DNA from: Hemileia vastatrix
Lineage: Eukaryota > Basidiomycota > Pucciniomycetes > Pucciniales > Zaghouaniaceae
Direction of reading: 5' to 3'
DNA length: 64,000 nt
Assembly: GCA_030280995.1 (NCBI GenBank)
Contig: JASXTE010000001.1
Coordinates: 901,001-965,000, forward strand
Shown here: positions 7,468 to 62,228 of the stretch, in pieces
Layout of the letters: every line of letters begins with the position of its first letter
How positions within the stretch are numbered: the stretch's first letter is position 1
The notes under the pieces: model-generated
The model's database searches: none
Seen by the model: the letters and a program-made list of their open reading frames with translations, nothing else
What the model was told of the DNA's origin: nothing
Translations under genes and position numbers: made by a program

Positions 7468-7473
7468 ATTATT

Positions 7474-32285: not shown

Positions 32286-32296
32286 GGAATGGCATT

Positions 32297-34740: not shown

Positions 34741-34799
34741 CAAACTAGGAAAAAAAAGTAGAAGTTACCCAGGTAGTTACATGAGAATTTAGGAAATAG

Positions 34800-40692: not shown

Positions 40693-41235
40693 GTTGTTTG
40701 GATGAAGGTAATCCAGGTTATTAGATGGGCTATTTATAGGTTAATAATGGCATTATGGATGAGACATCAGTTGTGAAATAACTGACATGGGTGCTGAATG
40801 GTTTTTAAGAAGGATATGAAGAATTTTCATCAAAGAAAAAAACAATAAGGGACCTAAGGAAAGGCGAATCCGTTGCAGTCAAGGGAAAGTCATACGTTGG
40901 GAAGATCTGAAGATTTCAAGGGAATTCATGCATATATGACGCAGGGGATGTATTTGCTGCTATAGGTAGTAGCACCAATCTCAGATTAACTTTGTGTTTT
41001 TGTTTCACCTTTCATAGGCACTTGGTAGTAAGGTGAGCTGTTTGGAAATAGGATGATATTTTTAAGGGCAACTCATCTCGCAGATGTTAAGTTTTCACAA
41101 GGGACTTGGGGTCAAGCAGAATTAAGAAGAAAAAAAAGAAATATAAAAAAAATTATTATTATTGCGTTTTTTTACAAAGCTATGTACAATTTATTAGAAA
41201 TAAATAAGGAAGATTTTTTTTAGTATTCTGTGTCA
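40693..41235. other. Region upstream of antisense gene Y (D copy 2)
   Basis: Between gene X and gene Y; it should contain the promoter of Y. Noncoding. It contains the text ACGCAGGGGATGTATTTGCT near 40940, also present at 37563 and, changed, in A near 45960. No hairpin motif is found here, unlike B and E. Confidence 0.45.
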
Positions 41236-42238: not shown

Positions 42239-42352
42239 TGAAGGAAATAAATTTAAGAAAGAACAAGGATTTGTAGTAAGTAAGTTAGAAGATGGAGGAA
42301 GAAAACGCTGCAAGACGCAGGATATTTATAGGCTCCTGGGGATAGTCCCAAG

Positions 42353-42363
42353 TAGAGGGAGGA
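42353..42363 (+). other. Polypurine tract of element D
   Basis: AGAGGGAGGA immediately before the 3' LTR (TGTAGTATG). Confidence 0.7.
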
Positions 42364-43473: not shown

Positions 43474-44285
43474 CAGCGGTGCCATTTGTAAACCTTAAGG
43501 CAAGTCATGTAGCTGAACTCTTAAAGAGAGAATGGATTTATAGGTATGGGGTAATGAAAATGGTAACCATGGATGTAGGTGCTGAATTTGCTGGAGAATT
43601 ACAAGATGTAGTCAAAGATATAGGGGCTAAGCTACCAGCTGCAACACCTTATTATCCTGAAGCAGAAGGAATGGTAGAAAGAGGGCATCAAGTTATAAAG
43701 GATGCACTGGTTAAGTTATGTGGAAATAATGGTGCGAAGTGGAAGAACTATTTGCCATTAGTTTTGTTTGCAGATAGGATTTCAGTTGAAAGGACAACTG
43801 GGTTTTCAACATATGAACTTATGTTTGGTCAAAGGGCGGTATTACCTATTGATCTAGAGGCTGGATCTTTTCTAGGATGTGACTGGGATTAAGTGCGCTT
43901 GACTAAAGATTTAATTCTAGCAAGGGTAGGGCAGCTTGAAAGAAAAGATGAGTTTGTGGAGAAGGCATATGATAGAATGATGCAAATCTGGGACAAGTCA
44001 GTTAAATATTGGGATGAGCATTTAGGTCATAGGTTAAAGAAGCCATTGAACCCAGGAGATTTGGTTTTGGTTTATAATAGAAGTTTAAAAATCCAATGGG
44101 GGAAGATGTTTTCTGACAGATGGAATGGTCCTTATAGGATAAGAAAGCGCATAATGGGGGGGTCTTACTTACTAGAGAAACTGGATGGTACTGAATGGAA
44201 GCGGCGTGTGGCGGCAGATCAGATCAAAAGATTCTACCCAAGGGGTGTTCCAGTGATACAAGTTGACCTCCAGAATGAGAAATAA
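43474..44285 (+). pseudogene. Integrase of element A, C-terminal part
   Basis: Continues exactly from 28658: A-V-P-F-V-N-L-K-A. VTMDVGAEF holds the second catalytic Asp, with V for the usual G after it, and GMVERGHQ the Glu. TAA at 43890 follows FLGCDWD (Q expected). The rest is open to ...RFYPRGVPVIQVDLQNEK at 44285. A hairpin motif lies at 44296-44318. It was cut by element D. Confidence 0.85.
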
Positions 44286-44925
44286 CTACCAGAATGACCT
44301 CCAGGAAGAGGTTAAACTAACAAGTTAAGTTAAGCTTTGTTTTTCTAAGAGGACTCACAGGAGGCTTTGACACAGCTGTGATGGATAGAGGGTGCTAACT
44401 GGAAGTTATGTGCACTATGGCTGAACAGGAAACTGGCATAAGCGCTCAGATGAGGGCGCAGAGGAAAATGAAATCTTATATTTTCATTGTTTGAGGGAAC
44501 ATGATGAGATAGGCAATTGGATTAAAGTAGGCGCATACCATCTAAACGCAAAAGACACTGGGAATTTAGCTAATGAGTTAAATAACCAGGAGTGGAATAA
44601 CGATTTATAGATGGGGTGCGCTACATTTCAATAACTTATTTACATCATTTATTTTAGTGTTGCAGTAAAGGTGGTAAAATTTTAATGTTTGAAGTTTATT
44701 CTATGATGTTTTTTACTGGGTCTATAGTCTTTTAAAGAAAGTAGAGGGAGAAAAGTTAGACTCTCCATAATTTAAAAGGCAACTAACATTGAAGACAGGC
44801 GTAAAAGAATAGCGCAGTGTCTAGGATGTTTATTTAAAGGCTTAGCAGAAATAAAGACTATGTACAGAGATGTTGGAAAAAGAAGGCTTATAGAGAAAGG
44901 GCTAGTGGATTATTTAGTTTTGTGG
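44286..44925. other. Post-integrase spacer of element A
   Basis: Homologous to 36013-36511 of D. One hairpin motif at 44296-44318 (GACCTCCAGGAAGAGG then TTAAACT). No gene. Confidence 0.5.
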
Positions 44926-45722
44926 TTAAAACTATTAGGATATCCTTTCCATTCTTCAGGCATGACAAAGCAACAAAGATTGGCGGGGAATCTAAGAATA
45001 ATCAAAGAACTGATTTCATTCATTAGCTGAACTATCATTTCTATGTGGCTATACAAGCTTTGAGCTCAGCCTCAGAAAAGGCTGGTGCATGATTAAAGGA
45101 TAGAGACATAGTGTCGTATATAAGGCCAAGTCTGGTAAACATTTTCATGGAATGTACAAAATTTCGTAGAATAGGAACCCATCCCAGTGAGATGGATTCA
45201 CTGAAGCCTACAAGTTAGATCAGGAGTCAGTATATAGTGAAGGCATAAGTATAGTGAAAGGAACTTACTTGCTAACAAGTTATGGGGGAGCGCTGATGGC
45301 GAGGAGACTGTAACCATGTCTGGAGTAGCTGTAGAGGCGTCTGAATGCATAGAAGCAATGGAGCTTGTGGAAGAAGAAAGCGCAGCGCTAGGCTGAATGG
45401 ATATTTTTCACCTGAAACAAGCGGGAAGTGATGATGATTTGTAAGTGACATCAGTAATGTGAGAAGAAGTAACGCTGGTAGGACTAGTAGTGATTATGAT
45501 AGGAGTGCTACTGGTGGAACTAGGTGGGAAACAAATGTAGCCAGTAGGCTGAGGAGTATTTTGATTTATGGAGGTGTTACAAGTCTTATGATATCTGAAA
45601 CAGTTATTGTAGGCAGGTCTAAAGGAGGCATACCCCCAAGGTCTAGAAAAGGTGCAATGGAAATTGTGACTTTTGCAGAAAGAGCATGCTTGATCTCTGG
45701 GAGTGGTGTGGTATTGAGTCAT
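44926..45722 (-). pseudogene. Antisense gene Y of element A
   Basis: ATG at 45720-45722 (MTQYHTTPRDQ). Cysteine block C-x2-C-x6-C-x17-C-x6-C (ACSFCKSHNFHC...NNCFRYHKTC), complete for five Cys. TGA at 45408-45410 (CFR*KIS; D has Arg) interrupts exon 1. Intron 45208-45268 (GTAAGTTCC donor, TTGTAG acceptor) joins LLA to SFSESISLGWVP. Exon 2 is open to KACIAT and stops where D continues, so it is truncated. Homologous to 39845-40692. Confidence 0.7.
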
Positions 45723-46224
45723 GATACTAAGATGATGGAAATGTTGATTATTAGATGGGCTATTTATAAGCTATGAATGGCATTACAGAAATGGTGTCAG
45801 TTGCGCAATGTCTGACTTGAGCACTGAATGGTCTCTAAGGAACATGTGAAGGATTCTCATCATAGAAAAAGGAACCCAAGAAAAAGTGGAATCTGTTGCA
45901 GTCATAGGAAGGTCATATTGCAAAGATCTGAAGATTTCAAGGGAACTCATGCGTATATAATTCAGAGGATGTATTTTCTGCTTTAGGGAGTAGCGCTGAT
46001 CTTAAGTTTTGTTTTTTTGTTTTGTTTTCTGTCATTTATCTTTCAGAGGCACTTAGTAAAAAAGGGTGCGCTGGCAAGTTTGGAAGCAGGATTTCATTTG
46101 GGGGGAAACTCATCATGTAGGGCTCACACAATGAATTTAAATGCAAATATAAAAAAAAGGAAATGTTTATTACTTTTACAGGCTATGTAGACAATAATTA
46201 ATATTAAAAAGAAAAGTTTTTTTT
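45723..46224. other. Region upstream of antisense gene Y in element A
   Basis: Corresponds to 40693-41235 of D. Noncoding; no motif recognised. Confidence 0.4.
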
Positions 46225-46376
46225 TTAGTATTCTGTGTCATCAAAAATTGGGATGCAGAAAGCCCAGTCATTAACAGCTTCTTGCATGTTTTGTTGCAAG
46301 GTGGATATGAGCTGAGTTTGTTGGTTATACTTGGTGCAAGTATAGACCGGGGCTGCCTCCAGAAATAGCTTGACGG

Positions 46377-47482
46377 TATGGTAAGGTAAACTCTTACAGT
46401 CGCCTTGCTGTAAGCAGAATCCGGAGGAGATATGTGGATTTAGTGTAAAACCCCGTCCTTCCAATAAAAATAACAAAATGGGAATTCTAAATCACTAAGC
46501 TAACCAATCTACTTGGATCTGATTGATGAAAATAATGAAACTCTAAAATAATTAACGCTTATTGAGATTTAAAGAAAGTGGCTGTTGAGAAAGAAATACT
46601 GATTACAACAATTAAGGTGTACCAGTGAAAGATCTGAAAAGATTGACTTTTATGTTTTTATAATATTTGAGTTTTTATGAGACAGCAATAATCAAGTCCC
46701 AGTGGTGAAGACCTTTCTAAAGATACCCTATATGAAGTGTGATTTAAATTGTTGAATTGTATTTCTAAAATGTTATGTAAAAATAATAAATGTTATAAGG
46801 GTATTATAACTTATTTAATTTGTTGAGTAATAAAAAATGAGACTGTGGTGGTTAAAGATTAAGCTGTATGTTGTATCCCCCTCTCAATTTCGAGTTTGAG
46901 AAGCGCTTAAGTATTCCTAGTCACGTGCCTAAGTTTTCCCCTCCAGAGCTCTTCCAGAGTCAATCCGGAGCCGGAACAGAGTCCGTACGGAGTCAAAGCG
47001 GAGTCCGTCCGGACTTCCGGACTCAATTAGAACCTTAAAACTATAATAAAAAATCTAGAAAAATTACACATAATAGAGCTACTTCCCGGTTACATACCAA
47101 ACTAATTTTCGTAGTCTGCGCAGCTCTAATTACCCCGTGAAAATTTATCAAAGTTAAGTAATTTTTGAAAACGTAAATATTTCTATAAAACTTTAAAATT
47201 CATTTAAAAATATAAGAAAAATAGTAAAAATTCTGGGAAAATTTCCCAAGGTTCTTGAGTGACTTGACTTGATACTTATAGATTTTTCAAACCGTAAAAA
47301 TAAGTTTTCTCCGTAAAATAAATTGTATTTGTGTAGGCATTTGCTCGTGACCAATTTCTTCATATTTTAAACTCCAATAAATTAAATAAAACCCTTTTAT
47401 AAAAAATAATAACACCAATCTTGCATGCCGTAATAACTCCATTTACGTACTTAGGTGCCATACTAAACTTTAGGCTACCACA
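46377..47482 (-). mobile_element. 3' LTR of element B
   Basis: 1106 bp, the same length as 58819-59924. On the minus strand it runs TGTGGTAGCC to CCTTACCATA. It is flanked by ACGG at 46373-46376. Near its 3' end CTTACAG and CTGTAAG (46393-46414) can form a 7-bp stem. Confidence 0.95.
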
Positions 47483-47496
47483 TCCTCCCTCCAATC
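47483..47496 (-). other. Polypurine tract of element B
   Basis: On the minus strand ATTGGAGGGAGGA ends directly at the LTR start TGTGG. Nearly the same sequence is found in E. Confidence 0.75.
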
Positions 47497-47605
47497 GAGA
47501 ATGTCCCCATTCTTAAAACTTTGCATAAGTGGTCGAACACAATATTCATCTTTAACCTTCAACCACCATCTTCTTTAATCAACTATAAAATTCATCTTCA
47601 TCAAT

Positions 47606-48297
47606 ATGTCTTCCAAAGAACTTGTCGCTCCATGTGAACTCTGCGCTTGATACCAGGTACCTTGTTTAATGTCCAACCCTAATCTTCTTGGCAGGACAGC
47701 TTGCGACTTATGCCATGTGAAAAAAGTCAAATGTAACCGGCCAATAGTTCCTTCTAAAACAAACGTATATTTAGGACCAGCAGCTCTCCCTGATCCCTCA
47801 ACTTCTAAAAAGCGATCCAAAATTCCTGTCTTCTTAAAACTAATAAGATCAAAAACAGCTTCAAAAGTTCAATCTTCATCAGCGGATCCCGGCCTAATTT
47901 TGCCTTCACAAGATCCTAATCCTATAACGCCAGTACCCCCAACTAACTTTGCTGAGACTATGTTTCCTGGCTCTAAATGTAAGACCCTATTTATCTTACT
48001 AAAAAAACTTTTAATCAAAATTGACTAAAACTATGACTTAATAACATATTTGAACTTCTAGCTGTCAAAATAACCAACACTGATGATGTTGGTAGAGTGA
48101 AGACGGACTATATCAATCATTATCCAAATTTTCATTGCTATCTTTTTCTTGACTTTACTAATGAGTTGAAACGAAAAATGCTGGCCTATTTTCAAGAAAC
48201 TCCAGCTAATAACCATGAAGACCTCATGAAAAGAAGAATTTTAATGCAAAGCTTTGATAATGATGTTGAACAATTTCAAAGAAATTATCTTTTCTAA
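47606..48297 (+). pseudogene. Antisense gene X of element B, Zn2Cys6 pattern
   Basis: On the strand opposite to pol of B. ATG at 47606 (MSSKELVAPCELC). Pattern C-x2-C-x6-C-x12-C-x2-C-x6-C: APCELCA*YQVPC...TACDLCHVKKVKC, i.e. the complete spacing of a Gal4-type Zn2Cys6 domain, with one TGA (47645) in the first loop; starting at the in-frame ATG 47669 would keep only the second half. A Ser/Pro/Lys-rich region follows. Intron 47979-48061 (83 nt, GTAAGA...CTTCTAG) joins FPGSK to SVKITNTDDVG in frame. Exon 2 ends LKRKMLAYFQETPANNHEDL...NYLF. The latter matches gene X of E. It starts ~120 bp inside the 3' LTR boundary. Such domains bind DNA as dimers in fungal regulators; a role here is inferred. 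Confidence 0.7.
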
Positions 48298-48880
48298 CAG
48301 TATAACTTGATAAAATTTTGTTTTTGCTTGGTCTTCTTAAACTTTCAACATAGATGATGTTTTCTTTCTTCTCTGGCTTGATATAACATAAAATAAAATA
48401 AAATAAATCTTGTGATGATTCCACTACTGAGAGCAAGGTTTGAATCCCTTCAGACTCCCATATACCAGTCTTCCTTCTTGTCACAGCATTGAGAGAGTGG
48501 ATCTTCCTATGAGCCGAATACTCCTGATTCCAACCTCATAGGGCCCCCCACTGAGCCGAATTCTATGATTCCAATCTCGCCATAAGGTCCTCCAAGCTTC
48601 ACACCAAAAAAAAATGGCCTAACTATGAGGCACTAAAAAAAATCATTCCCTAAAATCCAACTACCATCCTAACTTCTGATTCCTTCATCACAATTTTCAA
48701 ACTTTGCTATACAGCAAACCCATAAAATACTTTTGCCAGGCTTCCAATAATAATATTAACTTTAGACCATGTTAAAGCGCCACAAATTTCACCTAATTAA
48801 CCATTATGCTTTTCTTAGCATCATCACCACCTAAAATTTTAACCTCCTAAAGCTATCAGCACCCAATTCCAGAAATAATT
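48298..48880. other. Spacer between antisense genes X and Y of B
   Basis: Noncoding. Contains a partial repeat of GAGCCGAAT...CTGATTCCAA (48510-48580). A weaker part is AT-rich. Just downstream starts the hairpin cluster. Confidence 0.45.
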
Positions 48881-48888
48881 AAATAACC

Positions 48889-49355
48889 AGTTTAGAGTCT
48901 TAGTGGACAGTGATAAATTAAAAGATTGAATTGAGTTATCCAAACAAGATTGACATTCCAGTTTAAAGTCTTGGTGGACCAAACATATAATCGATTGCCA
49001 GTTTATGGTCTTGGTGGACCAAAGATCGTTTAAGTGCATAAATATCTTGATATATTCCTAAGTAAGGCCTAGGCTTGACCAAAGATTGAATAAATTTGAT
49101 AATCCAGTTTAATGTCATAGTGGACCAAACATTTGATCGACAAGTAATCCAGTATCAGGCCATAGTGGTCCAATGAATGTTGAATTATCCTGCAGATATT
49201 AATTTTCCAGTTTAAAGTCATAGTGGACTAAAACAATGAATGAACTACCAGTTTAAAGTCATGGTGGACCAAACATTTGATCGATAAGAAATCCAGTTTA
49301 AGGTCATGGTGGACCCAACAGCTTGATAACAGTCCAGTTTAAGGTCTTGGTGGAC
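48889..49355 (-). repeat. Cluster of nine hairpin motifs upstream of gene Y (B)
   Basis: Plus-strand copies of CCAGTTTA.rGTCwTrGTGGACC begin near 48892, 48958, 49000, 49102, 49147 (degenerate), 49209, 49249, 49291 and 49333. On the minus strand, the sense strand of B, each reads GTCCACCAwGAC..TAAACTGG, with GTC/GAC stems. The cluster ends about 95 bp before the ATG of gene Y. Element E has its cluster in the same place. Confidence 0.9.
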
Positions 49356-49450
49356 CTAACAACTTCTCTATCCTTGAACCCAGATTTTGCTACCAGCTTT
49401 CTTCATCCTAGTTTCAAGTTTTTCTTCTTCAAAAAATATCTCCTAACAAG

Positions 49451-50464
49451 ATGAAACCTTCTGACTTCATTGCTTCAGCTGATCAATCTTGCAAATACTG
49501 TGCCTTCACCCATAGGGAATGTATCTTCTCTTTTAACTGGCAAAAGCACACTTATAACAGGGCCTGTTTATCCTGCTATGAGAAGAAAAGAAAATGTTCT
49601 GGCTTGAACTGTGGTTCTTTCCCCATCACTGCTACTAGCTTCTCTGCCTTCTGCAAACCTCTTCCTTCTTCTTCACCTTCTACTCCACCCCCTATTCCAT
49701 CAACCTCAAAAGATCCCATCCCTTTTTCTCCATCAGCCTATTTAAATCTTTCTCCATCACCTAATCCTCTGGGTCCTTCTCTCCAATCTAGACTTGCTAC
49801 TACTCCCCCAAGAACTCTTGCTGCTCCCAGGGCCATGCTTCAACCTTCTAACAATTCTTCTCCTTCTTCCAACATCTTGAAGCACAAAAGGTCCTATAAT
49901 AGCCAGCAGTCTTCATCTTCTCTTGTTTCATCCAAAAGGCCCAGAACATCTACTTCAAACACCAAATCCAACACCAGTCCTCCTCATCTATCAAAAATAA
50001 AAAATCCTTTTCTAAACATAAAAAATCCCACTCCATTACCAAGTAAGCCATTTATCTATGATCATGATAGTGTTGACACAGGTTAGTTGTCTCTTTTTAT
50101 TTTCTTAATCTTCAGGTTTTAATTTGCTGATATTTTAATTTGATAAGCGCCCACCGGTTCTCCACTTTCATATTCAGCTTATGAACTACCAGAACCTAAT
50201 CCAAGCTTCCCTAGAGTTCCAATTCACCTAGTGTCTGAAAAGCTTTTTGCTAATTTTAATAACCTTATCGCTTATTTCCAACGATACCCGCCCTCTGATA
50301 GATCAGAATCTTGGAGGAGAGAGAAACTGTTAAGAGACCTTTTCAAAATAGCCAACTGGCTTCAACACTATCGTGACCGTGAAATAAGATTCAAATCCCA
50401 GGAAATCAATCAAGGTCCTTCTAAATTTTCTAATTTCGATTCTTCAAAAGATAACAACCCTTGA
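49451..50464 (+). CDS. Antisense gene Y of element B, Zn2Cys6 domain
   Basis: On the strand opposite to pol. ATG at 49451 (MKPSDFIASADQ). Residues 14-54 give C-x2-C-x6-C-x14-C-x2-C-x6-C (SCKYC...REC...NRACLSC...KRKC), the exact spacing of a fungal Zn2Cys6 binuclear cluster, with basic residues before the last Cys. A Ser/Pro-rich region follows, with basic patches (KHKRSYNS, SKRPRTSTS) that could be nuclear localisation signals. Intron 50082-50147 (66 nt, GTTAGT...ATAAG) joins HDSVDTA to PTGSPLSYS in frame. Exon 2 is helical and charged (NFNNLIAYFQRYPPSDRSES, WRREKLLRDLFKIANWL) and ends at 50464. No stop or frameshift: the gene is intact. It lacks the fungal-specific middle homology domain usual in large Zn2Cys6 regulators. 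Confidence 0.8.
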
Positions 50465-51181
50465 TGGTGTTCTTCCTGGTATGTAGCTTTCTTGAATAAT
50501 GTTTGAAAAATAAAATATAAACATCTAAACTACCTAAAACTAAAATACCTTTTATTTTTTTATTTATTTATTTATTTATTTTTTATTTTTTTTTATTTAT
50601 TTTATTTTATTTTATTTTTATTTTATTTTATTTTTTTTTATATTTATTATTATTATTTTTTTTTATTTTATATTTTTAGTTATTTTATTATTATTTTTTA
50701 CCATTTAAAATAAATTTTTTTTTTTTTTTTTAATTTTAAAAAAAGATAGTTTTGAAATAAAAGTTAAAATTTAATTTTTAAAGAAAGATAAACGAATGTG
50801 AAAAGAAAATAAAAAAAAAGTAATAAAATTTTTTTTAAAAATAAAATTTTAAAAGATGCCCCCCGGCCATTTGATGAGCCGTACCCTCGACATCATACCC
50901 ACATCCAAGTGCAACTTGATGTGGTTACACAATTTTGAGAAATTGAAAAGAAAAGAAAATAAATGAAAGTTTTTAGAAGATGATTTTTATAATGATGATC
51001 ACTGGGTGGGCTCCCTCCAATATATAAAAATGATTAGAGACCACCAGTGAGCATCACCTTTACAATAATTCATAATATATATTAAAGAAAAGAAATCACA
51101 ATCTATCATAAAAAAATCAAAAACAAAATTAAATAAAAAAATCTTGAATCCGGCATTGAGAGCGGTGTCTCTTGATTTGTT
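50465..51181. other. T/A low-complexity tract between gene Y and pol of B
   Basis: 50540-50740 is almost only T and A with TTTA runs (poly-A/TAAA on the sense strand of B). Further on it is A-rich. No gene. Confidence 0.6.
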
Positions 51182-51806
51182 CCAGTTTATAGTCTTAGTG
51201 GACTTCCTATAATTAAAAGACAAAGCCAGGATTCAACTAGAAACAGGGAAAATTTTGGAAACGAACATTATGGGGTAATTGTGTATAGAGCAGCCAGCCC
51301 ATCAATTACCCCCACACTTGCCAATATTAAATTAAGAAGGTTCCCCTGTGAACACTTCTTCCAATAAATTTTAAAAATTTTCCAACACTATCTTCACCCA
51401 TATTTTAAGAATTTTAAGTTTTTTTTGAAAATTTCAAAGAATGGCTTCTTGAATTTCGTTATGTTTCATCACAGTTTCGTTGCCCATATGCAGTGTAACG
51501 ATAGTAAAGTATTTTTGATAAAAATAAGAAGATAGTTTATACTCGTTGCGGAGGAATCCATAAAATTTCGTAGATATCATAGTTTATCCTCGTTGCGGAG
51601 GTATAAATTTAATAAAAGTCATTAAAATTGTAGTTTATCCTCATTTCGGAGTTCAATAAAATTTGATAAATGTCATTAAAATTGTAGTTTATCCTCATTT
51701 CGGAGTTATCCATATAATTTCATAAATGTCATAGTTTATCCTCATTGTGGAGGAATAAATTTAATAAAAGTCATTAAAATTGTAGTTTATCCTCATTTCG
51801 GAGTTA
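51182..51806 (-). repeat. Seven hairpin motifs downstream of pol of B
   Basis: One copy at 51182 (CCAGTTTATAGTCTTAGTGG), then six near 51534, 51582, 51631, 51686, 51729 and 51782 of the form TAGTTTATCCTCaTTkCGGAG. On the minus strand these read CTCCgmAATGAGGATAAACTA, with CCTC/GAGG-type stems instead of GTC/GAC. Several share flanks (TAAAAGTCATTAAAATTG), so the group grew by local duplication. Confidence 0.85.
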
Positions 51807-53438
51807 GACTTCGGCACTCCTGGTGCCTCTAGGATAGAACCGTTTCACTTGATCCGCTGCTACCCTCTTCTTTAATACTACTCCATCCAACTCTTCTAGC
51901 ACATATGAACCGCCGGAAACTTGCTCCTTGATTTTATACGGTCCATTCCACCTATCTGAAAACATCTTTCCCCACTGACTTTCCAAACTCCTATTATACA
52001 CCAGGACCATATCTCCTGGGTTCAAAGGTTTCCTTAATCGATGTGCCAACCGCTCATCCCAATATCTGACTGATTGATTTCGGATCTTCATCATCCGCAA
52101 ATATGCCTTTTCTAAATATTCTTCTTTCTTTTCTAGCTGCATCATTCTTGCACACAATAATTCTTCAGTAGTTTTGACCGTGTCCCAGTCAACTCCAAGA
52201 TATGATTCAGCTTCTAAATCAACCGGTAAAACTGCTTTCTGTCCAAAAACAAGTTCATAAGGTGAAAATCCGGTCGTCCTTTTGGCAGTGATTCGATCAG
52301 CAAATAAAACTAAAGGTAAATAGTGCCTCCACTTTTCGGCACTTGTCCCACACATTTTAACTAAAGCATCCTTAATAACTTGATGCCCTCTTTCCACCAT
52401 GCCTTCAGCTTCAGGATAATATGGGGTTGCTACCCTAACCTTTGATCCAACTTTCAATACGGCCTCTTTAAACTCTGTCCCAAATTCAGGACCTCCATCT
52501 ACCATTACCAACTTCATCACCCCATACCTATATACCCAATTATTCAAAAAAAATTCTGCCACATTTTTGGCAGTTAAATTAATAAGAGGCGCTGCCTCTA
52601 CCCAACCAGATAAATCATCTCTGGCCACAATTAAATATTTATACCGTCCCTCTTTTATATGAACGGCATCTAAACTAACTCTTCCAAAGAGCGTATATTC
52701 ACCGGTCGCGCGTCCAGGTTCTTTTGGCCTTAAATAACTTCGTGTTTGACATTCTTCGCATGACTGAACCCACTGTTTAACAGCCATCTTCATGCCAGGC
52801 CACCAAAATCGATCAGAAATTCTTCTAAACGTTTCTCCAACGCCTCTATGCCCGAGATCTTCATGCAGTGATTTCAAAACTAATTCTTGCCCCTTCTCTT
52901 GAGTTATAACTACTTGAGGATTTGGATACCTTCTCCTCATTAAACGTCGACCAGATAGGTAAAACGTAGATGACTTCCTCTTGATAGCCACCCATTCATT
53001 GTCTTCACAATCTTCTGGCCTCTCTAAAGTCAACAAATATTTGACTAACAAAAAATAAAAACCAGTCTGACCCCAGACTTCATCTTGAAAATCAATTAAT
53101 ATAACATCAATAGGGACTTCTCTATCACCAATATCACCTGCGCATGAATGAGCCAATAATCGTTGACCCCTAAATTAATTTTTAATCGAGCTATGTTGAC
53201 GTTGTTCTTCTAAACCTTTGGATCCTTCGTAAACCGTATTCGAAAATACCTCTTTCTCTTTATCCACCTTTTTATATAAATTCTCTAATTCTCCAACATA
53301 TACACCATTCCTTAATTTACTACTATCCCACACTACCAATCCATCTTCCTCTACATACACCACATCTTCTTCTACCTCCTTTCTACCGAATTTATCTACA
53401 CCTTTTCCAACACCTTTATTAACATAAAAAGTATTTTC

Positions 53439-53517
53439 CAGTTTATCCTCTTGGTGGAGGTCATCATCATCATAATCTAAACACAATAGTCCTGCCAGTT
53501 TAACCTCATGGGGGAGG
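53439..53517 (-). repeat. Two hairpin motifs in the RNase H-integrase linker of B
   Basis: At 53439-53460 and 53496-53517. Minus strand: CCTCCACCAAGAGGATAAACTG and CCTCCCCCATGAGGTTAAACTG. They encode LHQEDKL and LPHEVKL. Same place in pol as the VRNDNKL units of D. Confidence 0.85.
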
Positions 53518-55496
53518 TATGGAAAGTCTTCAGCTCCTTTAGTGCTGGCTTTGATAATAGGTATATCTTCATCGAACTCTTCTGAGTCTGAATCTTCTTC
53601 AGTGGGTGGTCTCCTTGATAAACCATCTGGCATAGTAAAAGTCTTACCAGGCTTATGAACTAAATCAAACGAAAAATGTTGAATAAAAGCTACCCATCTT
53701 GTCATGGGTGCGTTCGGTAAACTTGGGGAATTAATCATCTGGATTAACGATTTCGCATCCACTTGCAACTCAAAATGTTGCCCCCACAAAATATGCTGAA
53801 GTTTCTTCAATATTTTCGCCACACCACATAATTCCAATTTTGGTTGAGAATATCTTGATTCGACCTCAGTAAATACTACAGATTCATACCTAACTGGCCT
53901 GATGTAATCAGCTTTATCCATCTGAGACAAAACCGCCCCAGCTGCAACCTGACTTGAATCAACTGCTAAATAAATTCTACCAGCATCTTTTCCATAATCC
54001 AACTTGTGCAGGACTAAATCCTTCCCCACAACCTCCTTCAACTTCACAAACGCCTTCTCACACTCTTCATCCCACTCCCAGTCTGCATCCTTTCTCGTTA
54101 ACCGTCTCAATGGAGCTGCCAATGAAGAAAAGTCCTTGATAAACATTCTAACATATACGCAAACGCCTAAAAACCCTCTAACTTCGGTTGTATTCTTGGG
54201 TCTTGGCCAGGACTGAATTTTGTTAACTTTCTTCTTGGACATAATCCTACCCTCTCTACATACCACATGGCCTAATATTTCTAAGGCTGGCACACAACAT
54301 GAAAATTTTGAGCCTGAAATAGTTAACCCAGCCTCTTCAATTCGAAACAAGATTCTTTCTAATGTAATTGCAAACTCCCAAATGAATTTGCGTATCCCGG
54401 GATTCTCTTCCAACACCTGGTTATCATAGTCGGTTGTTGGTCCCTTAATTCCTCCATCATCTATAAAGATTCCAGCATATTGTGGAATTTCGTCTTGAAG
54501 GATCCAAGCCATCTGAGCTTGATAAACTGCAACCGAATTTGTTGCTCCTTGAGGTAATCTTGTTAACTGTAAACGTCCAAGTGGTGTATCAAATGTAGTG
54601 AGAGGCCTTGAGTCCGGATGTAACTCTCTCTCATCATATCCACCCATAATATCTCCCAAACCATAACACACTCTCCCTGCAAACGCTTCAACAAACTCCT
54701 CAGCACTAGGCGGTATCCCAGCATCCTTTATTGTAACCCTATTTAATTCCCTAAGATCATGAACAACTCTAAGCTTGCCATTCGGTTTCTTGATACAAAA
54801 TACCGGACTAGAATAACTTGATGTTGATTGCTCATACAGTCCAGTGCGTATCCGTTCTCTGAAAACTTCAATATAGGCTTCTTTTAATGCAGCCGGAATA
54901 GGAATCGTTTTCTGCTGCCACGGTTCATGACATACCACAGGAATCTTGTAAGGCTCCCCATAGGAATGCTTCAACACACCCCTCTCCTCTTCTACAAAAG
55001 CAATGGCCTTTTCTCGCTTGACCATCACATCCAACAACAACTTCTTCTCTTCTCCAGACAACCAACCATCAGGTCCAAAATTAACAACACCCAGTCTCTC
55101 AAAAGTGATTCTTGACGTCTCAGAAAATTCAGGCGGATTCTTTACCAAGGGACTTTCATGAGGATCTCTTGATAACCTTGGTCTTCTCAAAGGTGGATTT
55201 AATTCAGCAGGTAGCAGTTCATTAATAGGTCAAACTTTATTTGCTACTTTCTTATATTTGGCTGCGTCCACATCTAAATTAACTTGAGGTAAAACATTTT
55301 CTTTTGTATCGCCATTAAAACTTTCATCAAATGAATCTTCTTCATCGCCAGAATCAGAATAAGAAAAATTAGAAAAATATTTTATTTCATTTTTAAATTT
55401 TACCCTTTTCTCCTTTCCCTCGTCTAATTTATAAACAGATTTTCCAACACCTTTGCTTCCCTTATCCAACAGTAAATCACCCGTGAAGAAAGTTGG

Positions 55497-55773
55497 CAGT
55501 TTAACCTCTTGCTGGAGGACCGGAATTGAATTTTCACAAAAATTATTTTTTTGTGTTTTAATTATACTGAGATTTTTTATTGGATTTTGATGTGATTTTT
55601 GCAGTTTACCCTCTTGCTGGAGGTCCAAAATAGAAGGAGATACTTGCAGTTTAACCTCTTGCTGGAGGCCCGGAATAACATTTTCACATAAATTATTTTT
55701 TTGTGTTTTAATTATACTGAGATTTTTAATTTGGTTTTGATAAGTTTTTCGCAGTTTACCCTCTTGCTGGAGG
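55497..55773 (-). repeat. Four hairpin motifs in the protease-RT linker of B
   Basis: At 55497-55518, 55602-55623, 55647-55668 and 55752-55773. Minus strand: CCTCCAGCAAGAGGkTAAACTG, with CCTC pairing with GAGG. They encode LQQEGKL or LQQEVKL. The units form two pairs about 150 bp apart with the shared flank NPIKNLSIIKTQKNN, so a ~150-bp segment was duplicated. Confidence 0.9.
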
Positions 55774-56029
55774 TCATAAAACATACCCTTCCAATTTTTA
55801 TCCAACCTAATTTGGCCCATTTTGCCTTTTTCACCGTTTTTAAATTTAATAGAAAAACCGGGTAAATCCAATAAACATATAGAAAAGTCCATAACGTATT
55901 TGCACTCCAAAGTAATATTAACAGAAAATAATTGAGAATCCACTTGAATTATCTCCAAGTGAGCTGACCTATTGCAATCCGGGATCTCATCCTGAGGAGA
56001 GATTACAACATTAGAGTGATCAGCCCTTG

Positions 56030-56042
56030 CTACCCCAAAAAA
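56030..56042 (-). promoter_or_regulatory. Probable -1 frameshift site between gag-protease and pol (B)
   Basis: In the gag frame the last codons are CCT CAT TTT TTG GGG TAG. T TTT TTG (56036-56042) is a canonical X XXY YYZ slippery heptamer. A -1 slip there leads into pol as ...FF-GVARAD. Pol lies exactly one base back from gag. No downstream structure was worked out. Confidence 0.65.
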
Positions 56043-58642
56043 TGAGGGCATCCATCCCTTTCCAACAAACATAATTCACCAGAAGCCGTCCGTTTTATAT
56101 GCCGCTTCTTGGTGCAAACACAACACTGGCACAGAGTAGTAATCCCTGGCCGTGTTTCCCAACCTTCATCTCCAGGAGGCGCTAACCGCATATGTAACCT
56201 CCGCATATCTTCACCAGTGATCTCCAAACTAATCCCCATGCCAGCTTGATACCCTATCCTGGCCTCAAAATCCATCAAAAAAGGACCACCAAGAACAGTT
56301 TTGACTGCTCCTCTGGCCACATAAAAGTGAACCTTACCAACAGATCCACCAATGCCTAACCTGACATGCTCAGCTGTACCTATCAGCTCTGTTGCATGCC
56401 CTCCAATACCTCTGAGGTTTCCCCCAGTTCCACTTTTAATTGGCAAGCCTATACTCGTTGCTTGCTCCAATGAAATTAAATTAATTTGAGACCCTGAATC
56501 GACCAAGGCCTTTACTTCTTTACCATTAAGAGTTACCACCAGGTAACCCAGGGGAGCGGAAAAATGCGTATCTAAATCTTCCCCAAACTTTTCAGCATTT
56601 TCACAAATATATTCCACCTCTCCAGTGGAAACCCGACGCCTCGTCAAATGCTTCTTTTGCTTTTCAGCAAGCGCCGGACTAATCGTAAATAACTCCCCCA
56701 AAGATAAGGGAATCTGCAGTTGATTCACCCTATTCAAAACTGCGTCCATCGCATTAGCTTGACCAGAAACTACTGGCCGCTCATACTGGACGTTTGATTT
56801 AACAACCTTGGCCCTGGGTACCTCTTGAGGTCCAACCGAGCCATCTTCACCCCCCATTATAACATCTTCACTTTCTATAACCCTAACTCCGTCACCAGCT
56901 TCTTGCACTAATCCTGATCCATCGCTAGTCCTTCTTACACCCTCCATTGGGATGGGACCGCTAAAACTTGGTCTGGGTAGAGACGCCAACGGTACGTCCT
57001 CCTCAGAATCCGAATCATCCTCTGGCATAGGCTCACCATTTAAATCAAACTTGCCATAACTAGGGGGCCCCATATCAGCAATCCCCTTCTGCATTTTATA
57101 TAATTCGTCCTTAGAGTAAGGGTTCAATTTGTTGGCGGCAGTTTGAGCACTAGAATTCTTGTCCTTAGAGTAAGGGTTCACTTTGTTATTGGCCTTGCCA
57201 GGATTAGCCCTCAATTGGCTCTGAATGCTACTTTTTGCCTTAGTAGCAGCTGCTCTTCTAGCAGCATTAACATCGTATTCGCCAGCCATACAGCTACCCT
57301 CCACCTGGGCAACCGTTGCCAGCTCTAAACCACCAAAAGAAGTAGAAAATGTGGCTTTACTGACCTCTTTCTCTTTACCCTTGTCAGCTTTTCCACCATT
57401 ACCATTACCATTTTTGCCACCCTTGGCATTAACATCTTCATCTGTCACCTCTTCAAATCTGGCTCTCCTTTCAGCCGTTAAACTTCTTCTGACCAAATCA
57501 GAAGGAGACTGTCCATCACTGGGCTTGATGAACGAACCATCAGGAAATTTATAAACTTTACCGTCAAATAAAACTTTCCCAGCATCCATATCCTTATCAA
57601 GAGCAAAACAAACTGTTGCTCTGTGCCCCCTCCTATTACAACAGGAGCACACCTTTGGCTCATCATAGCCACCTCTATAACTATTACTACCACCATTACC
57701 ACCATTTCTCCCATTGCCTGGGAAGCGGTTTCCATTATTATTGCCATTATAATTTCGACGTTCATAACCTCTGGACTGATAAGAAGTCGACGTCGACGAA
57801 GAAGCGATTGGGGCCTTATTGGCCTTCTGGGTTTCTTGAACAAATATTTTTAACTGTTTAGTTAAATCAGCCAGGTGATCGACCATCTTATTATCTACAT
57901 TGCCCTCAACTTTAGCAGCAGGTAATCCCATTTGAGCCTTCTTGGCCTCCTGGGCTTTGACCATAATATCTTTATTTTCGGCCAAAACTTCGCTAACCTT
58001 GCTAACATATTGAGTGCATGACTCTTGATATTTGTCCAACGCCAATAACTTTAGATGGGCTTGAATGTTGTCCTTGATAACCTCCAGAGCCGGCAGTTTC
58101 TGCTCACCATTAGGCAGTTCCTTCATCAAATCTTTTCTTGAAAGATCCTTCAAGACGTCCATTCGAATATCCCTACTGCATGCTGTCCAAAACAAATCTT
58201 TTGCTTGGTTCTCATGCACTAACTCGTCCACCAGTATGAGATATTCCACCACTTCATCAAACTGAACACAGAGCTTTTTGAAGTCAGCCATAGAAGAAAC
58301 TCCACCTTTTTCTTGCCAGTCTCCAACAATTTTATTGAGGTCCATCATAGTAAACCTAACACCCCATCTATCAACCATAGCTTTAGAAAGCTTAACCCAA
58401 TCCTTGTCCTTGAATGCCTGCATAGCAATAACCTCTTTTTCCACCTCCCTATCAGCAATAAAAAATCTAACTTGCTTCACCATGTCCACATGGGAAGCAC
58501 CATCAACAGCAGCAGCAGCTTCATACCTGCTAATGAACCATTTAACCTCCTCCCCATCAAACTTTGGGCCATCCCAAGAAACAATTCTAACTGAGGGAGT
58601 AAGAGGGTTAGAAGATCCAGAAGCAACAGCAGAAGAAGACAT
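56030..58642 (-). CDS. gag: gag-protease of element B
   Basis: 870 codons, open. Start ATG at 58640-58642 (MSSSAVASGSS). Capsid-like N-terminal half (SVRIVSWDGPKFDGEEVKWF, IRMDVLKDLSRKDLMKELPN), Asn/Gly-rich stretch, zinc knuckle CSCCNRRGHRATVC (C-x2-C-x4-H-x4-C, residue ~335) for RNA binding, and a C-terminal aspartic protease with active site LVDSGSQINLIS (~residue 715) and TVLGGPFLMDFEARIGY. The placing of protease in the gag frame is usual for several Ty3 lineages. The stop TAG is at 56030-56032, overlapping the pol frame by 43 bases. It resembles gag of element C in text and order. Confidence 0.9.
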   Translation of the reverse strand: MSSSAVASGSSNPLTPSVRIVSWDGPKFDGEEVKWFISRYEAAAAVDGASHVDMVKQVRFFIADREVEKEVIAMQAFKDKDWVKLSKAMVDRWGVRFTMMDLNKIVGDWQEKGGVSSMADFKKLCVQFDEVVEYLILVDELVHENQAKDLFWTACSRDIRMDVLKDLSRKDLMKELPNGEQKLPALEVIKDNIQAHLKLLALDKYQESCTQYVSKVSEVLAENKDIMVKAQEAKKAQMGLPAAKVEGNVDNKMVDHLADLTKQLKIFVQETQKANKAPIASSSTSTSYQSRGYERRNYNGNNNGNRFPGNGRNGGNGGSNSYRGGYDEPKVCSCCNRRGHRATVCFALDKDMDAGKVLFDGKVYKFPDGSFIKPSDGQSPSDLVRRSLTAERRARFEEVTDEDVNAKGGKNGNGNGGKADKGKEKEVSKATFSTSFGGLELATVAQVEGSCMAGEYDVNAARRAAATKAKSSIQSQLRANPGKANNKVNPYSKDKNSSAQTAANKLNPYSKDELYKMQKGIADMGPPSYGKFDLNGEPMPEDDSDSEEDVPLASLPRPSFSGPIPMEGVRRTSDGSGLVQEAGDGVRVIESEDVIMGGEDGSVGPQEVPRAKVVKSNVQYERPVVSGQANAMDAVLNRVNQLQIPLSLGELFTISPALAEKQKKHLTRRRVSTGEVEYICENAEKFGEDLDTHFSAPLGYLVVTLNGKEVKALVDSGSQINLISLEQATSIGLPIKSGTGGNLRGIGGHATELIGTAEHVRLGIGGSVGKVHFYVARGAVKTVLGGPFLMDFEARIGYQAGMGISLEITGEDMRRLHMRLAPPGDEGWETRPGITTLCQCCVCTKKRHIKRTASGELCLLERDGCPHFLG

Positions 58643-58800
58643 CCCAATAAGTAATGAAAAGCGTTAACAAGCGATAAAATAACAAGCCTCTTGCAGGCCA
58701 ATAACAAAAATCCAATTAGAGTTCCAGAAAATAAGCCTCTTGCGGGCTAATAACGTTCTTGATCCAAGTAAGTCTTTAAAGAAAGCTAGAGAAATCGAAC
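58643..58800 (-). other. Leader of element B with two AGCC...GGCT repeats
   Basis: Plus-strand units AAGCCTCTTGCGGGCTAATAAC (58731-58753) and CAAGCCTCTTGCAGGCCAATAAC (58681-58703). On the sense strand AGCC and GGCT flank CGCAAGA, and the core GCAAGAGG equals that of the LQQEGKL motif, but TAAACT is missing. Possibly a divergent copy of the hairpin motif in the RNA leader. Confidence 0.5.
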
Positions 58801-58818
58801 CCCACGTTGGGCGCCAAC
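58800..58818 (-). other. Primer-binding site of element B
   Basis: On the minus strand directly after the 5' LTR: GTTGGCGCCCAACGTGGG. The form TGGCGCC.. fits the 3' end of a tRNA (ending CCA). The tRNA was not identified. C has TGGGGCCCAACGTGGGG at the same place. Confidence 0.7.
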
Positions 58819-59924
58819 TATGGTAAGGTAAACTCTTACAGTTGCCTTGCTGTAAGCAGAATCCGGAGGAGATATGTGGATTTAGTGGAAAACCCCGTCC
58901 TTCCAATAAAAATAACAAAATGGGAATTCTAAATCACTAAGCTAACCAATCTACTTGGATCTGATTGATGAAAATAATGAAACTCTAAAATAATTAACGC
59001 TTATTGAGATTTAAAGAAAGTGGCTGTTGAGAAAGAAATACTGATTACAACAATTAAGGTGTACCAGTGAAAGATCTGAAAAGATTGACTTTTATGTTTT
59101 TATAATAATTGAGTTTTTATGAGACAGCAATAATCAAGTCCCAGTGGTGAAGACCTTTCTGAAGATACCCTATATGAAGTGTGATTTAAATTGTTGAATT
59201 GTATTTCTAAAATGTTATGTAAAAATAATAAATGTTATAAGGGTATTATAACTTATTTAATTTGTTGAGTAATAAAAAATGAGACTGTGGTGGTTAAAGA
59301 TTAAGCTGTATGTTGTATCTCCCTCTCAATTTCGAGTTTGAGAAGCGCTTAAGTATTCCTAGTCACGTGCCTAAGTTTTCCCCTCCAGAGCTCTTCCAGA
59401 GTCAATCCGGAGCCGGAACAGAGTCCGTACGGAGTCAAAGCGGAGTCCGTCCGGACTTCCGGACTCAATTAGAACCTTAAAACTATAATAAAAAATCTAG
59501 AAAAATTACACATAATAGAGCTACTTCCCCTTTACATACCAAACTAATTTTCGTAGTCTGCGCAGCTCTAATTACCCCGTGAAAACTCATCAAAGTAAAG
59601 TAATTTTTGAAAACGTAAATATTTCTATAAAACTTTAAAATTCATTTAAAAATATAAGAAAAATAGTAAAAATTCTGGGAAAATTTCCCAAGGTTCTTGA
59701 GTGACTTGACTTAATACTTATAAATTTTTCAAACCGTAAAAATAAGTTTTCTCCATAAAATAAATTGTATTTGTGTAGGCATTCGCTTGTGACCAATTTC
59801 TTCATATTTTAAACTCCAATAAATTAAATAAAACCCTTTTATAAAAAATAATAACACCAATCTTGCATGCTGTAATAACTCCATTTACGTACTTAGGTGC
59901 CATACTAAACTTTAGGCTACCACA
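58819..59924 (-). mobile_element. 5' LTR of element B
   Basis: 1106 bp, partner of 46377-47482. Followed on the plus strand by ACGG (59925-59928), the target duplication. Confidence 0.95.
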
Positions 59925-60930
59925 ACGGCAGTGAACATATTGTTCATTAAACGCATGGTCGCCTCAAATGGTGCACAGGCAATTTGCTCTGCAAATTTCC
60001 AGTTATGAGCCATGGCGGGCTCTTCTTCCTTGTCAAATGAAGGGGAATCAGTGGGCCAGTCATCCAGGACAACCGCATTATTAGTTGGCTGTATACCACT
60101 CTAATTGGGAGTTGCTGGTCAAGGCATGCATTCTGGAGGAGCGGCAGCATCCCAGGGAGGATCTTCTTCTAAACCAGGAAGGAAAAGTGAATTGTTTGGT
60201 GGAGGAGACGTCTCAGCATTAGGAGTTGATGGCGCATCCTAAGAAAGAAAGAATAGTATTAGTTTTAGGTCAAAAGAAGAAGAAATTAAAAAAGGAACTT
60301 ACAGTATGAATACTTTCCTCTGAAAAGAGCAATCTAGGAACAAAAGCAACACTACTAGGAGTAGGTGCTCAGAAATCAACCCTGGCACATTTGTTGACTG
60401 GAAGAGTAGCTAGTTCAGGTGCAGGACGTTTGATGGTCATCTGACTCATCATATCCAAGGTGGAGGAATCTGGGTTTATACACGCAACAGTGGGTGGTCC
60501 ATCATAGCTACACTTCTTCTTGCAACTTTTGCGAAAATTGAACAACTAAAAGGATGAAAGAAATGGATGTTAGTAATGATAGGATAATAGAAAAAAGGAA
60601 GACTCATGTTAAAATAAGTGTTGCCACGGTGGGATTTTGAAAGTGGCAGGAGGTGATCCCGTTTTCAATGCAGCGGGTGCATCTTGTCCTACCCATCAGC
60701 GTAGTAAGTGGCGTCATGGGAGGAGCAGCAGGGGGCTGCGTTTGCACAAATTGTCAAATGGCATCCACAACGTTGGCGGTATTTTCAGTATTAATTGTGG
60801 TATTTCTTGTATTCATTATTAAAAAAGTTAAGATAAAATAAAAAGTTATAAAAAATTAGAATAAGAGGAAGATGGAGGAAGAATATGCTGCGAGGCGGGG
60901 GGTATTTCTAGGCTCCTGGGGACAGTCGCA

Positions 60931-60943
60931 AGTAGAGGGAGGA
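60931..60943 (+). other. Polypurine tract of element A
   Basis: AGTAGAGGGAGGA directly before the LTR start TGTGGTATG. Confidence 0.7.
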
Positions 60944-62210
60944 TGTGGTATGCGCATTGCAGGTAACTTATCTTTTGAACCAATCAGCTTGTGTCTCCCA
61001 GGAAGAAAAAAGGGGAATCATAGTGCAGAAGATAGTGCTATTATAAATATATAATTATGGTTTTAAAAGAACAAAGGGAAAGAGAGGCGCAGAAGTGGAT
61101 TTAGGGTCTGTGCACTTGGATTTTGTAGTGGGATGTGTCACATAAAGGAATTATCAACTTAGGAGTGCAAGGGCTGAACATTATGGATTTAGATTTTCCA
61201 ATAATTGTGTTTTATGAATTAAGGAAGGAATTATGGCTCAAGGAAGGCCTCAAGTACATAGTATACTGCACTGCGGCTAATGTGGTAACTTACTGAAATG
61301 GGTGATGTAAGTTGCAGAGGCTAACTAGTTAAGTCAATTGTCAGAGCTAGGGACTTAGTAATGAAACAAGGAGAATGGGGACTCAATCACAAAATTACCC
61401 AAGTATCAAAGAGACTAGGATCAGCACTGAAAGGTGACAACTCAGGAAGTAGCGCTGAAACAATGCAAAGGTACAGTCATAAGTGTGCACGTGGAACATG
61501 AGTGAAACAATTAAATACTAGTTTTAGTAAGCTTAGGATATGTTTAGGCACTGTAGTTGTTACAAGCGGTGTATTTACTTTACTAATGAATTAGTGGATG
61601 TTTTACTAATGTGGTGCTAGAAACAGGACTGGAGATCCACTAGGGAGCTGTGTCTTGAGCACTGAAATATATAAGAAGGAAAGGCTATCTTATAGAAGAG
61701 TAGTGAGGTAGAAAGATTATTATTGAGATCAGTCATTTGATTACAAACATTAGAGCTTCATATTATATACTTTCAAAATATATTGTGATATATAGTGATT
61801 TTGTCTATTTTGTGATTACTCTGATAAAAAGTTTGTGTGTCTGTGTGTGTATTTCATATATTTTAGTGAAAAGGCGCAACACAGAGGGAATATATAGATT
61901 TAGTAGGATAAACTATTATTAGAGTTATTTTATTGCTATAATAAGGCATATTCAAAGAGAGCGCTTCAAGAGGGAGTAGCTGTGAATATTAGCGCATATT
62001 AAGAATAGAAATATCCAGATAGTAATATTTGTTTTTCCTTATCTTTTAACTCATCTCTCAACTCATAAACTATCTAGTCAGATACTAGTATTACACATTA
62101 TTGTGCTGTCTTTAAAATAAGAGTGGCAGGCGCTTCTTTTTAGAAATTGAAAAGAGGAACCAACCCATCTTTCATTGTGTCTACTGCTTAGTACTTTATA
62201 ACTCTCTACA
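60944..62210 (+). mobile_element. 3' LTR of element A
   Basis: 1267 bp, partner of 22141-23399. Begins TGTGGTATGCGC, ends CTCTCTACA. ACAT follows, against ACGT before the 5' LTR. Confidence 0.9.
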
Positions 62211-62228
62211 ACATTGGGCCCCAGAAAT

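What the first reader, a model, noticed from the sequence alone, without database searches (positions are those of the whole stretch)
46225..60816. Paired, spliced antisense genes with Zn2Cys6-like domains in three Ty3 element families
Seen: elements A/D, B and E each carry two genes (X and Y) between pol and the 3' LTR on the strand opposite to gag-pol. Each begins with a cysteine block; B-X (C-x2-C-x6-C-x12-C-x2-C-x6-C) and B-Y (x14) have exact Gal4-type spacing, while E-Y and A/D-Y are close variants. Canonical GT-AG introns (53-83 nt) on the antisense strand rejoin frames in B-X, B-Y, D-Y, D-X, A-Y and E-Y. Conserved C-terminal text (LAYFQETPANN / LIYFQSTPARK) links X of B and E. An intron on the antisense strand survives retrotransposition of the sense RNA, so these genes must be transcribed on their own. 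Known: Zn2Cys6 is a fungal DNA-binding domain; antisense ORFs exist in some plant gypsy elements. Inference: the element encodes its own regulator pair, perhaps controlling the LTR or the host response.
Basis: partly seen in the sequence, partly recalled or inferred. Interest (0 to 1): 0.92.

Follow-up and report, generated by a model that had tools for sequence, protein, structure and literature searches.

The report
Antisense regulator-like gene pair in retrotransposons
Several families of Ty3-type jumping genes in a rust fungus carry two extra, spliced genes on the opposite strand; both look like DNA-binding regulators, are kept by natural selection, and may let the element control its own activity.

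Summary
Confirmed and extended. Two genes (X, then Y) lie on the strand opposite gag-pol, beside the 3' LTR, in Ty3 families of this 748-Mb rust genome: E (46377-59924), OUT/IN2 (nested, 22141-62211) and F (a fragment near 4.6-8.6 kb; its pol is not in the window). They are not chance ORFs: matches filled all 150 scored places in each of six genome searches, and between diverged copies pN/pS is 0.16-0.48 in the predicted frames, 0.80-2.08 in the other frames of that strand. In OUT/IN2-Y selection follows the spliced frame, not the unspliced ORF. The block is not ordinary Zn2Cys6: the basic triad, normally first, comes second, and no piece tested reaches Pfam's cut-off. A 20-bp motif with a GTC-N6-GAC dyad forms arrays between X and Y in E and F. 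E copies lacking X and Y keep the array and multiplied after one shared deletion. Best reading: an element-encoded pair of DNA-binding regulators acting in trans; regulation and target are inferred. Nearest parallel: plant Retand/Grande antisense ORFs.

The parts
46377..59924 (-). Element E (Ty3), gag-pol on minus; LTRs 46377-47482 and 58819-59924 (98.6% identical)
   Evidence: protease, RT-RNaseH and integrase domains in ORFs 51804-58642
47606..47978 (+). E-X exon 1, swapped Zn2Cys6-like block; in-frame TGA at 47648-47650, private to this copy among the 9 aligned
   Evidence: the piece after the stop in 150 of 150 scored places, 147 without stops
47979..48061 (+). E-X intron (GT-AG), 83 nt here, 83-91 nt in copies
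   Evidence: 9 of 9 copies
48062..48297 (+). E-X exon 2, C-terminal motif LAYFQETPANN
   Evidence: 35% identity to F-X over 68 aa
48888..49355 (+). Array of 8 motif units CAGTTTANNGTCNTNNNGGAC between X and Y; a ninth unit at 51183
   Evidence: 19 matches in the window to the 20-bp core with up to 3 mismatches, 0.02 expected
49451..50081 (+). E-Y exon 1, C-x2-C-x6-C-x14-C-x2-C-x6-C, open
   Evidence: 150 of 150 scored places at 98-100% identity without stops
50082..50147 (+). E-Y intron, 65-69 nt in copies
   Evidence: GT-AG in 32 of 33 copies, one GC-AG
50148..50464 (+). E-Y exon 2
   Evidence: pN/pS of variants shared by two or more of 33 copies 0.25
22141..62211 (+). Element OUT (LTRs 22141-23400 and 60944-62211, 90.8%), hosting IN2 and E as nested insertions
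44908..45722 (-). OUT-Y (decayed: a stop in exon 1, a one-base gap in exon 2)
   Evidence: pN/pS 0.29 (exon 1) and 0.39 (exon 2, spliced frame) against IN2b
59936..60816 (-). OUT-X (broken: stops, altered donor, split by insertion of E)
28659..43475 (+). Element IN2 (LTR alignment 28670-29770 with 42375-43475, 93.1%; start 28659 read from the sequence), inserted in OUT; tandem duplication 34135-37785 / 37782-41161
39848..40692 (-). IN2-Y copy b; intron 40238-40186
   Evidence: 3302 candidates, 150 of 150 scored at 75-100% over most or all of the query
36522..37317 (-). IN2-Y copy a (tandem duplicate, decayed)
   Evidence: 93.7% to copy b; exon-1 pN/pS 1.34 against it
41239..42237 (-). IN2-X, three exons (two GT-AG introns); frameshift in an A run of exon 2
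   Evidence: pN/pS 0.31, 0.33 and 0.48 in exons 1-3 against OUT; C-terminal exon in 150 of 150 scored places at 65-100%
4609..6108 (-). F-Y (exon 1, intron of 69 nt, exon 2); decayed copy
   Evidence: 150 of 150 scored places at 79-100%
6263..6722 (-). F motif array, 9 units, between F-X and F-Y
6805..7439 (-). F-X (stop and lost Cys in this copy), beside the F LTR at about 7.5-8.6 kb; start read from the sequence
   Evidence: C-terminal piece in 150 of 150 scored places at 75-100%

Best explanation
Ty3 elements of this rust genome carry a pair of antisense, intron-bearing accessory genes. Shown: X and Y are coding genes under purifying selection, with introns supported by conservation and by selection, in the order 3' LTR - X - Y in every case read with both. 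Inferred: each makes a small nuclear protein whose N-terminal cysteine cluster (two C-x2-C-x6-C triads, the basic one second) binds DNA and whose conserved C-terminus mediates pairing or activation; in E and F the target is the repeated CAGTTTANNGTCNTNNNGGAC site between X and Y. They would set antisense and/or gag-pol transcription and act in trans, so copies that lost X and Y but kept the sites still spread as parasites of intact copies.
For: Coding and selection: F-Y exon 1 pN/pS 0.16 and exon 2 0.19 for pairs with dS>0.3 (other frames of that strand 1.25-2.08 over all pairs); OUT/IN2 Y 0.29 and 0.39, X 0.31, 0.33, 0.48; third-position excess p from 4.8e-6 to 9.6e-9 for three F-Y exon 1 pairs. 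Splicing: splice ends kept, and length changes confined to the introns but for one exon deletion in E-Y and one insertion in E-X; exon-2 selection follows the spliced frame. Domain: the first 15-16 positions of Zn_clus match the second triad in 9 of 10 block-bearing X or Y pieces of E and F; Leu3 and AlcR halves match in swapped order; PPR1's first half matches E-X's second triad at E=0.0076. Sites. Trans action: 5 of 14 E copies share one X deletion and also lack Y, while 14 of 14 keep at least 8 motif units.
Against: No X or Y piece scanned reaches the Zn_clus gathering score (best 18.9 of 21; one match as low as 8.9); one F-Y piece (L068) and the OUT/IN2 pieces scanned have no Zn_clus match. 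The first triad of one F-Y copy, searched alone, matched C2H2 fingers of PRDM9, no zinc cluster. Structure prediction failed (pLDDT 43). The array was not found in OUT/IN2 nor in the LTRs read, so a target common to all families is lacking. Y-less copies keep and mostly have longer arrays, which fits a cis site but also a neutral repeat. Among young E copies pN/pS is 0.74 (X) and 0.56 (Y). Spread of X/Y-less copies also fits X and Y being dispensable. No RNA data.
Confidence: 0.6

Rival explanations
1. X and Y are real antisense proteins, but their cysteine clusters bind RNA or the element's nucleic acid, as a nucleocapsid-like chaperone, packaging or Env-like accessory, rather than regulate transcription.
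For: The cluster scores below the Zn_clus cut-off. The proteins have Ser/Pro-rich middles (by eye). X- and Y-less copies multiply, as with any helper function.
Against: Weak but one-sided resemblance to fungal DNA-binding clusters (PPR1, Leu3, AlcR, Lac9). Separate antisense transcription suits a regulator better than a virion part (inference).
Confidence: 0.2
2. X and Y counter host silencing (small RNA, methylation), with the DNA-binding part used only for targeting.
For: High copy number of the families shows success in this genome. Selection is present.
Against: No direct evidence; no domain tied to silencing appeared in the Pfam scans.
Confidence: 0.12
3. The antisense RNA, not the protein, is the functional product.
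For: Antisense RNA of plant elements has been suggested to act this way (PMC7264820, passages read).
Against: Codon-level selection in specific frames and across introns.
Confidence: 0.04
4. Chance ORFs or ORF shadows of another coding strand.
For: The window's own copies carry stops and frameshifts. The three frames of the opposite strand were not computed.
Against: Matches in 150 of 150 scored places in each of six searches, and pN/pS well under 1 between diverged copies only in the predicted frame among the three of that strand.
Confidence: 0.01

Closest known systems
Antisense additional ORFs (aORF-3R) of plant Ty3 elements: Grande gene23, RIRE2, Retand (PMC7264820 and PMC11963269, passages read)
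   Same: Antisense ORF(s) between pol and 3' LTR, conserved across copies, tandem repeats in the same region (Retand), suspected DNA binding and regulatory role, derivatives lacking parts.
   Different: Here a fungus; two genes per element; spliced, with introns supported by selection; a Zn2Cys6-like cluster rather than TRP28 (PF04195), which appeared in none of the Pfam scans of X/Y pieces. The words 'intron', 'zinc', 'transcription factor' and 'fung' do not occur in the main text of PMC11963269, nor 'intron', 'zinc', 'fungi' and 'transcription factor' in PMC7264820.
HTLV-1 HBZ (details recalled; antisense HTLV genes are mentioned in the passages of PMC11963269)
   Same: Antisense, spliced, DNA-binding-type regulator at the 3' end of an LTR element.
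   Different: HBZ is a bZIP protein of a retrovirus (recalled); no homology implied; here two genes.
Fungal Zn2Cys6 factors (Leu3, PPR1, AlcR, Lac9; Gal4 recalled)
   Same: Two C-x2-C-x6-C triads, basic residues in one triad.
   Different: Triads in swapped order, loop of 12-15 residues, below the Pfam cut-off, carried by a retrotransposon.

Membership tests
Zn2Cys6 (PF00172) | C-x2-C-x6-C, loop, C-x2-C-x6-C | tested here: met
   E-Y (x14 loop); 5 of 8 fetched F-Y pieces by eye (x15 loop); E-X with x12, but across a stop in the window copy. Not met in single copies of OUT-Y, IN2-Y and IN2-X in the window
Zn2Cys6 (PF00172) | Basic half first, the other half second | tested here: not met
   Profile positions 1-15/16 fall on the second triad in 9 of 10 X/Y pieces of E and F; Leu3 and AlcR halves align swapped, at weak E-values
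Zn2Cys6 (PF00172) | Score over Pfam's gathering cut-off (21 bits) | tested here: not met
   Best 18.9 bits, 17.2; in the genome 13 places are reported, all over the cut-off, none an X or Y copy listed or 100 (150 of 3258 candidates scored)
Plant aORF-3R / Retand | Antisense ORF between pol and 3' LTR | tested here: met
   E, IN2, OUT; for F pol is not in the window
Plant aORF-3R / Retand | TRP28 domain PF04195 | tested here: not met
   Not listed for X/Y pieces at E<=10; HMMER's filters drop most weak matches
Ty3/Metaviridae | Protease - RT-RNaseH - integrase order between LTRs | tested here: met
   for E; RT relatives in Austropuccinia and Puccinia
HBZ-type antisense regulator | Antisense transcript starting in the 3' LTR | not testable with these tools
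   No RNA data

The most novel reading that the evidence does not exclude
A lineage of fungal Ty3 elements encodes its own two-gene transcriptional circuit in antisense: paired regulators with a half-swapped binuclear zinc cluster bind a conserved dyad array lying between their genes, and deletion derivatives that keep only the sites parasitise the circuit.
Probability: 0.3. Interest if true: 0.88.

Novelty: new variant of a known kind. Interest (0 to 1): 0.76.

Why it matters
Antisense accessory genes of plant LTR elements have no settled function; here the encoded proteins have a recognisable, selected, DNA-binding-like block, splicing that means they must be made from their own transcripts, and a candidate target array in the same element. 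That makes the question of what such ORFs do testable, and would show retrotransposons running their own regulatory circuit. Annotation by Pfam's cut-off would miss the genes.

Tried and rejected
Chance-ORF and antisense-RNA readings were rejected on frame-specific selection. That the 224-aa unspliced IN2-Y ORF is the product was rejected because selection follows the spliced frame. A bromodomain match in F-X (E=0.007, below the cut-off) was not seen in E-X exon 2 and is treated as chance. X-Y paralogy by a shared C-terminal motif rests on one comparison at E=1e-4: left open. AlphaFold2 on four Y pieces gave pLDDT 43, unusable; no fold search was made. Protein searches with E-Y and an F-type Y found nothing at E<=10 (816 and 7806 candidates), although the same database holds rust pol proteins; the word-based search is insensitive, so absence elsewhere is not shown. 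Viral contigs gave nothing. Literature searches whose listings showed no report of such genes in fungi; a swapped zinc cluster. These are open-access papers only, and the lists were cut at 12-15 rows. PMC3248453 and PMC3411680 were searched for passages only. One search stopped with an error after a wrong cut of one copy; one search replaced it.
Full report
Setting. The window lies in a 747.6-Mb genome of 791 contigs. The nearest relatives of the E reverse transcriptase that bear a fungal name are proteins of Austropuccinia psidii (57-68% identity), Puccinia striiformis (51-73%) and P. coronata (70%, partial cover); unnamed ones reach 75%, and one filed under a bacterial MAG has 71%. The host is therefore taken to be a rust fungus; the species is not identified. 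The window holds nested Ty3 elements: OUT (22141-62211), into which IN2 (about 28659-43475) and E (46377-59924) inserted, E having landed inside OUT's X gene. A fragment of a third family, F, lies at about 4.6-8.6 kb; no pol matching E or IN2 was found in 1-20 kb.

Anatomy. In E, reading away from the 3' LTR on the plus strand (gag-pol is on minus): X exon 1 47606-47978, intron 47979-48061, exon 2 48062-48297; motif array 48888-49355; Y exon 1 49451-50081, intron 50082-50147, exon 2 50148-50464. IN2 and OUT have X with three exons and Y with two, on minus, with gag-pol on plus. F has the same order, LTR - X - array - Y. TATA-like boxes are visible by eye upstream of IN2-X, IN2-Y, OUT-Y and F-Y; they were not tested.

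State of the window copies. E-X has an in-frame TGA at 47648-47650, inside the cysteine block. The 8 other copies aligned do not have it, but one of them has another stop, two lack the ATG and one has a 270-nt insertion. IN2-X has a frameshift in an A run; OUT-X has stops and is split; F-X has a stop and a lost Cys; F-Y has an extra residue in its second triad. OUT-Y, IN2b-Y and IN2a-Y each lack one or more Cys, but between them all six positions are occupied, with a loop of 14; OUT-Y also has a stop and a one-base gap. Copies with open reading frames exist in the genome.

Abundance and pairing. Six protein searches of the whole genome each filled the 150 scored places. E-Y exon 1: 98-100% identity, 150 of 150 without stops. 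E-X piece: 94% or more, 147 of 150 without stops. F-Y: 79-100%, 124 of 150 without stops by my count. F-X C-terminus: 75-100%. IN2-Y: 75-100%. IN2-X C-terminal exon: 65-100%, 91 of 150 without stops by my count. The scored rows are the best of 1708 to 8282 candidates, so they favour well-kept copies and say nothing of the rest. Comparing the X and Y lists by eye, I found 12 X-Y pairs about 1 kb apart on one strand for F and 12 pairs 1.76-2.06 kb apart for E; this was not an exhaustive count.

Selection. F-Y N-terminal pieces from 9 copies (window plus 8 of the 9 fetched; L069 gave no open piece): pN/pS 0.16 over 20 pairs with dS>0.3 and 0.22 over all 36 pairs; exon-2 core from 6 of 10 copies: 0.19 over 12 pairs, 0.21 over all; the two other frames of that strand 1.25-2.08 over all pairs. 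Single close pairs reach about 1 (1.10 for window F against L061). IN2b against OUT: Y exon 1 0.29 (other frames 1.14-1.47); Y exon 2 0.39 in the spliced frame against 1.21 and 0.94; X exons 0.31, 0.33, 0.48, other frames 0.80-1.68. Third-position excess has p<0.05 in 9 of the 10 tests (1.6e-2 to 9.6e-9); Y exon 2 of IN2/OUT has p=0.058. Results that do not show constraint: the tandem duplicate IN2a against IN2b has 1.34 in exon 1 and 0.82 in exon 2, as expected of decay after duplication; young E copies give 0.74 for X (9 copies) and 0.56 for Y (4 copies), mostly from single-copy variants. For 33 E-Y copies (29 of them picked by protein score on exon 1), shared variants in exon 2 give 0.25 and single-copy ones 0.66. 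Frames of the opposite strand were not computed.

Splicing. E-X: GT-AG in 9 of 9 copies, length 83-91 nt. E-Y: GT-AG in 32 of 33 (one GC-AG), 65-69 nt; exon 1 has no gap in 33 of 33 and exon 2 a deletion in one. F-Y: the donor GTAAGTACCA is present in 8 of 10 and a TTTAG acceptor was found by pattern in 6 of those 8. IN2- and OUT-Y introns differ by 8 nt, and the selected frame continues only across the splice. No RNA was available.

The cysteine block. Pfam Zn_clus matches only with its first 15-16 positions, and these fall on the second triad: E-X, E-Y and 7 of 8 F-Y pieces (L068 none; OUT/IN2 pieces scanned none). All scores are below the cut-off of 21 (8.9 to 18.9). phmmer aligns both halves of Leu3 and of AlcR to Y in swapped order (E 4.7 and 1.2, weak singly), PPR1's first half to E-X's second triad (E=0.0076) and Lac9's first half to the second triad of an F-Y copy (E=9.3). 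The first triad of that copy alone found only C2H2 fingers of PRDM9 (E=7.6e-4). I read this as a permuted or half-swapped binuclear cluster; structure prediction was uninformative. E-Y and F-Y blocks are 42% identical over 45 aa, E=2e-8; E-Y and OUT-Y 28% over 39 aa, E=3e-4; OUT-Y and F-Y are not significantly alike (E=0.073); E-values are for single comparisons.

The array. CAGTTTANNGTCNTNNNGGAC (one mismatch allowed) occurs 9 times in E and 9 times in F and nowhere else in the window; the 20-bp core with up to 3 mismatches gives 19 matches against 0.02 expected. Eight of the E units and all nine F units lie between X and Y, all in Y's orientation; a GTC-N6-GAC dyad is present in 16 of the 18 units by eye. 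Among the E copies read, 14 of 14 keep 8 or more units. No array was found in OUT/IN2 or in the LTRs read.

Copy classes. Of the 40 LTR places listed I fetched stretches beside 22; 13 of these held the X/Y side. With the window that is 14: X+Y+ 4, X+Y- 5, X-Y- 5. The five X-less copies share one deletion junction and several substitutions, so that deletion happened once and then multiplied. That fits X and Y acting in trans while the array is needed in cis; it also fits X and Y being dispensable.

Verdict. Real, selected, spliced antisense gene pair: near certain. DNA-binding regulators: likely (about 0.65). Array as target: plausible (about 0.3). It works like the antisense regulators proposed for Retand and Grande elements and known from HTLV (recalled), but it is not shown to be a member of either, and it is not filed under PF00172 because half order and cut-off were tested and not met.

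Noticed in passing
window 1912-2463 (-): ORF with an SNF2-related domain (Pfam 5.3e-16), a piece of a helicase-like gene beside the F fragment.
   Followed up: no
window 20617-22014 (-): Gag-like stretch 42% identical to E gag: a piece of a further related element next to the OUT LTR.
   Followed up: no
window 34135-37785 and 37782-41161: Tandem duplication inside IN2 covering integrase and Y, about 92% identical.
   Followed up: partly
L011, L012, L017, L018, L024: E-family sublineage with one shared X deletion and no Y that has multiplied.
   Followed up: partly
whole genome G000: Only 13 places are reported for the ordinary Zn_clus family (150 of 3258 candidates scored), 12 of them on contigs on which none of the listed element copies lie; these might be contaminants.
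   Followed up: no
window 55496-55775: A 150-bp repeat in E between the protease and RT ORFs contains a diverged form of the array motif (4 mismatches).
   Followed up: no
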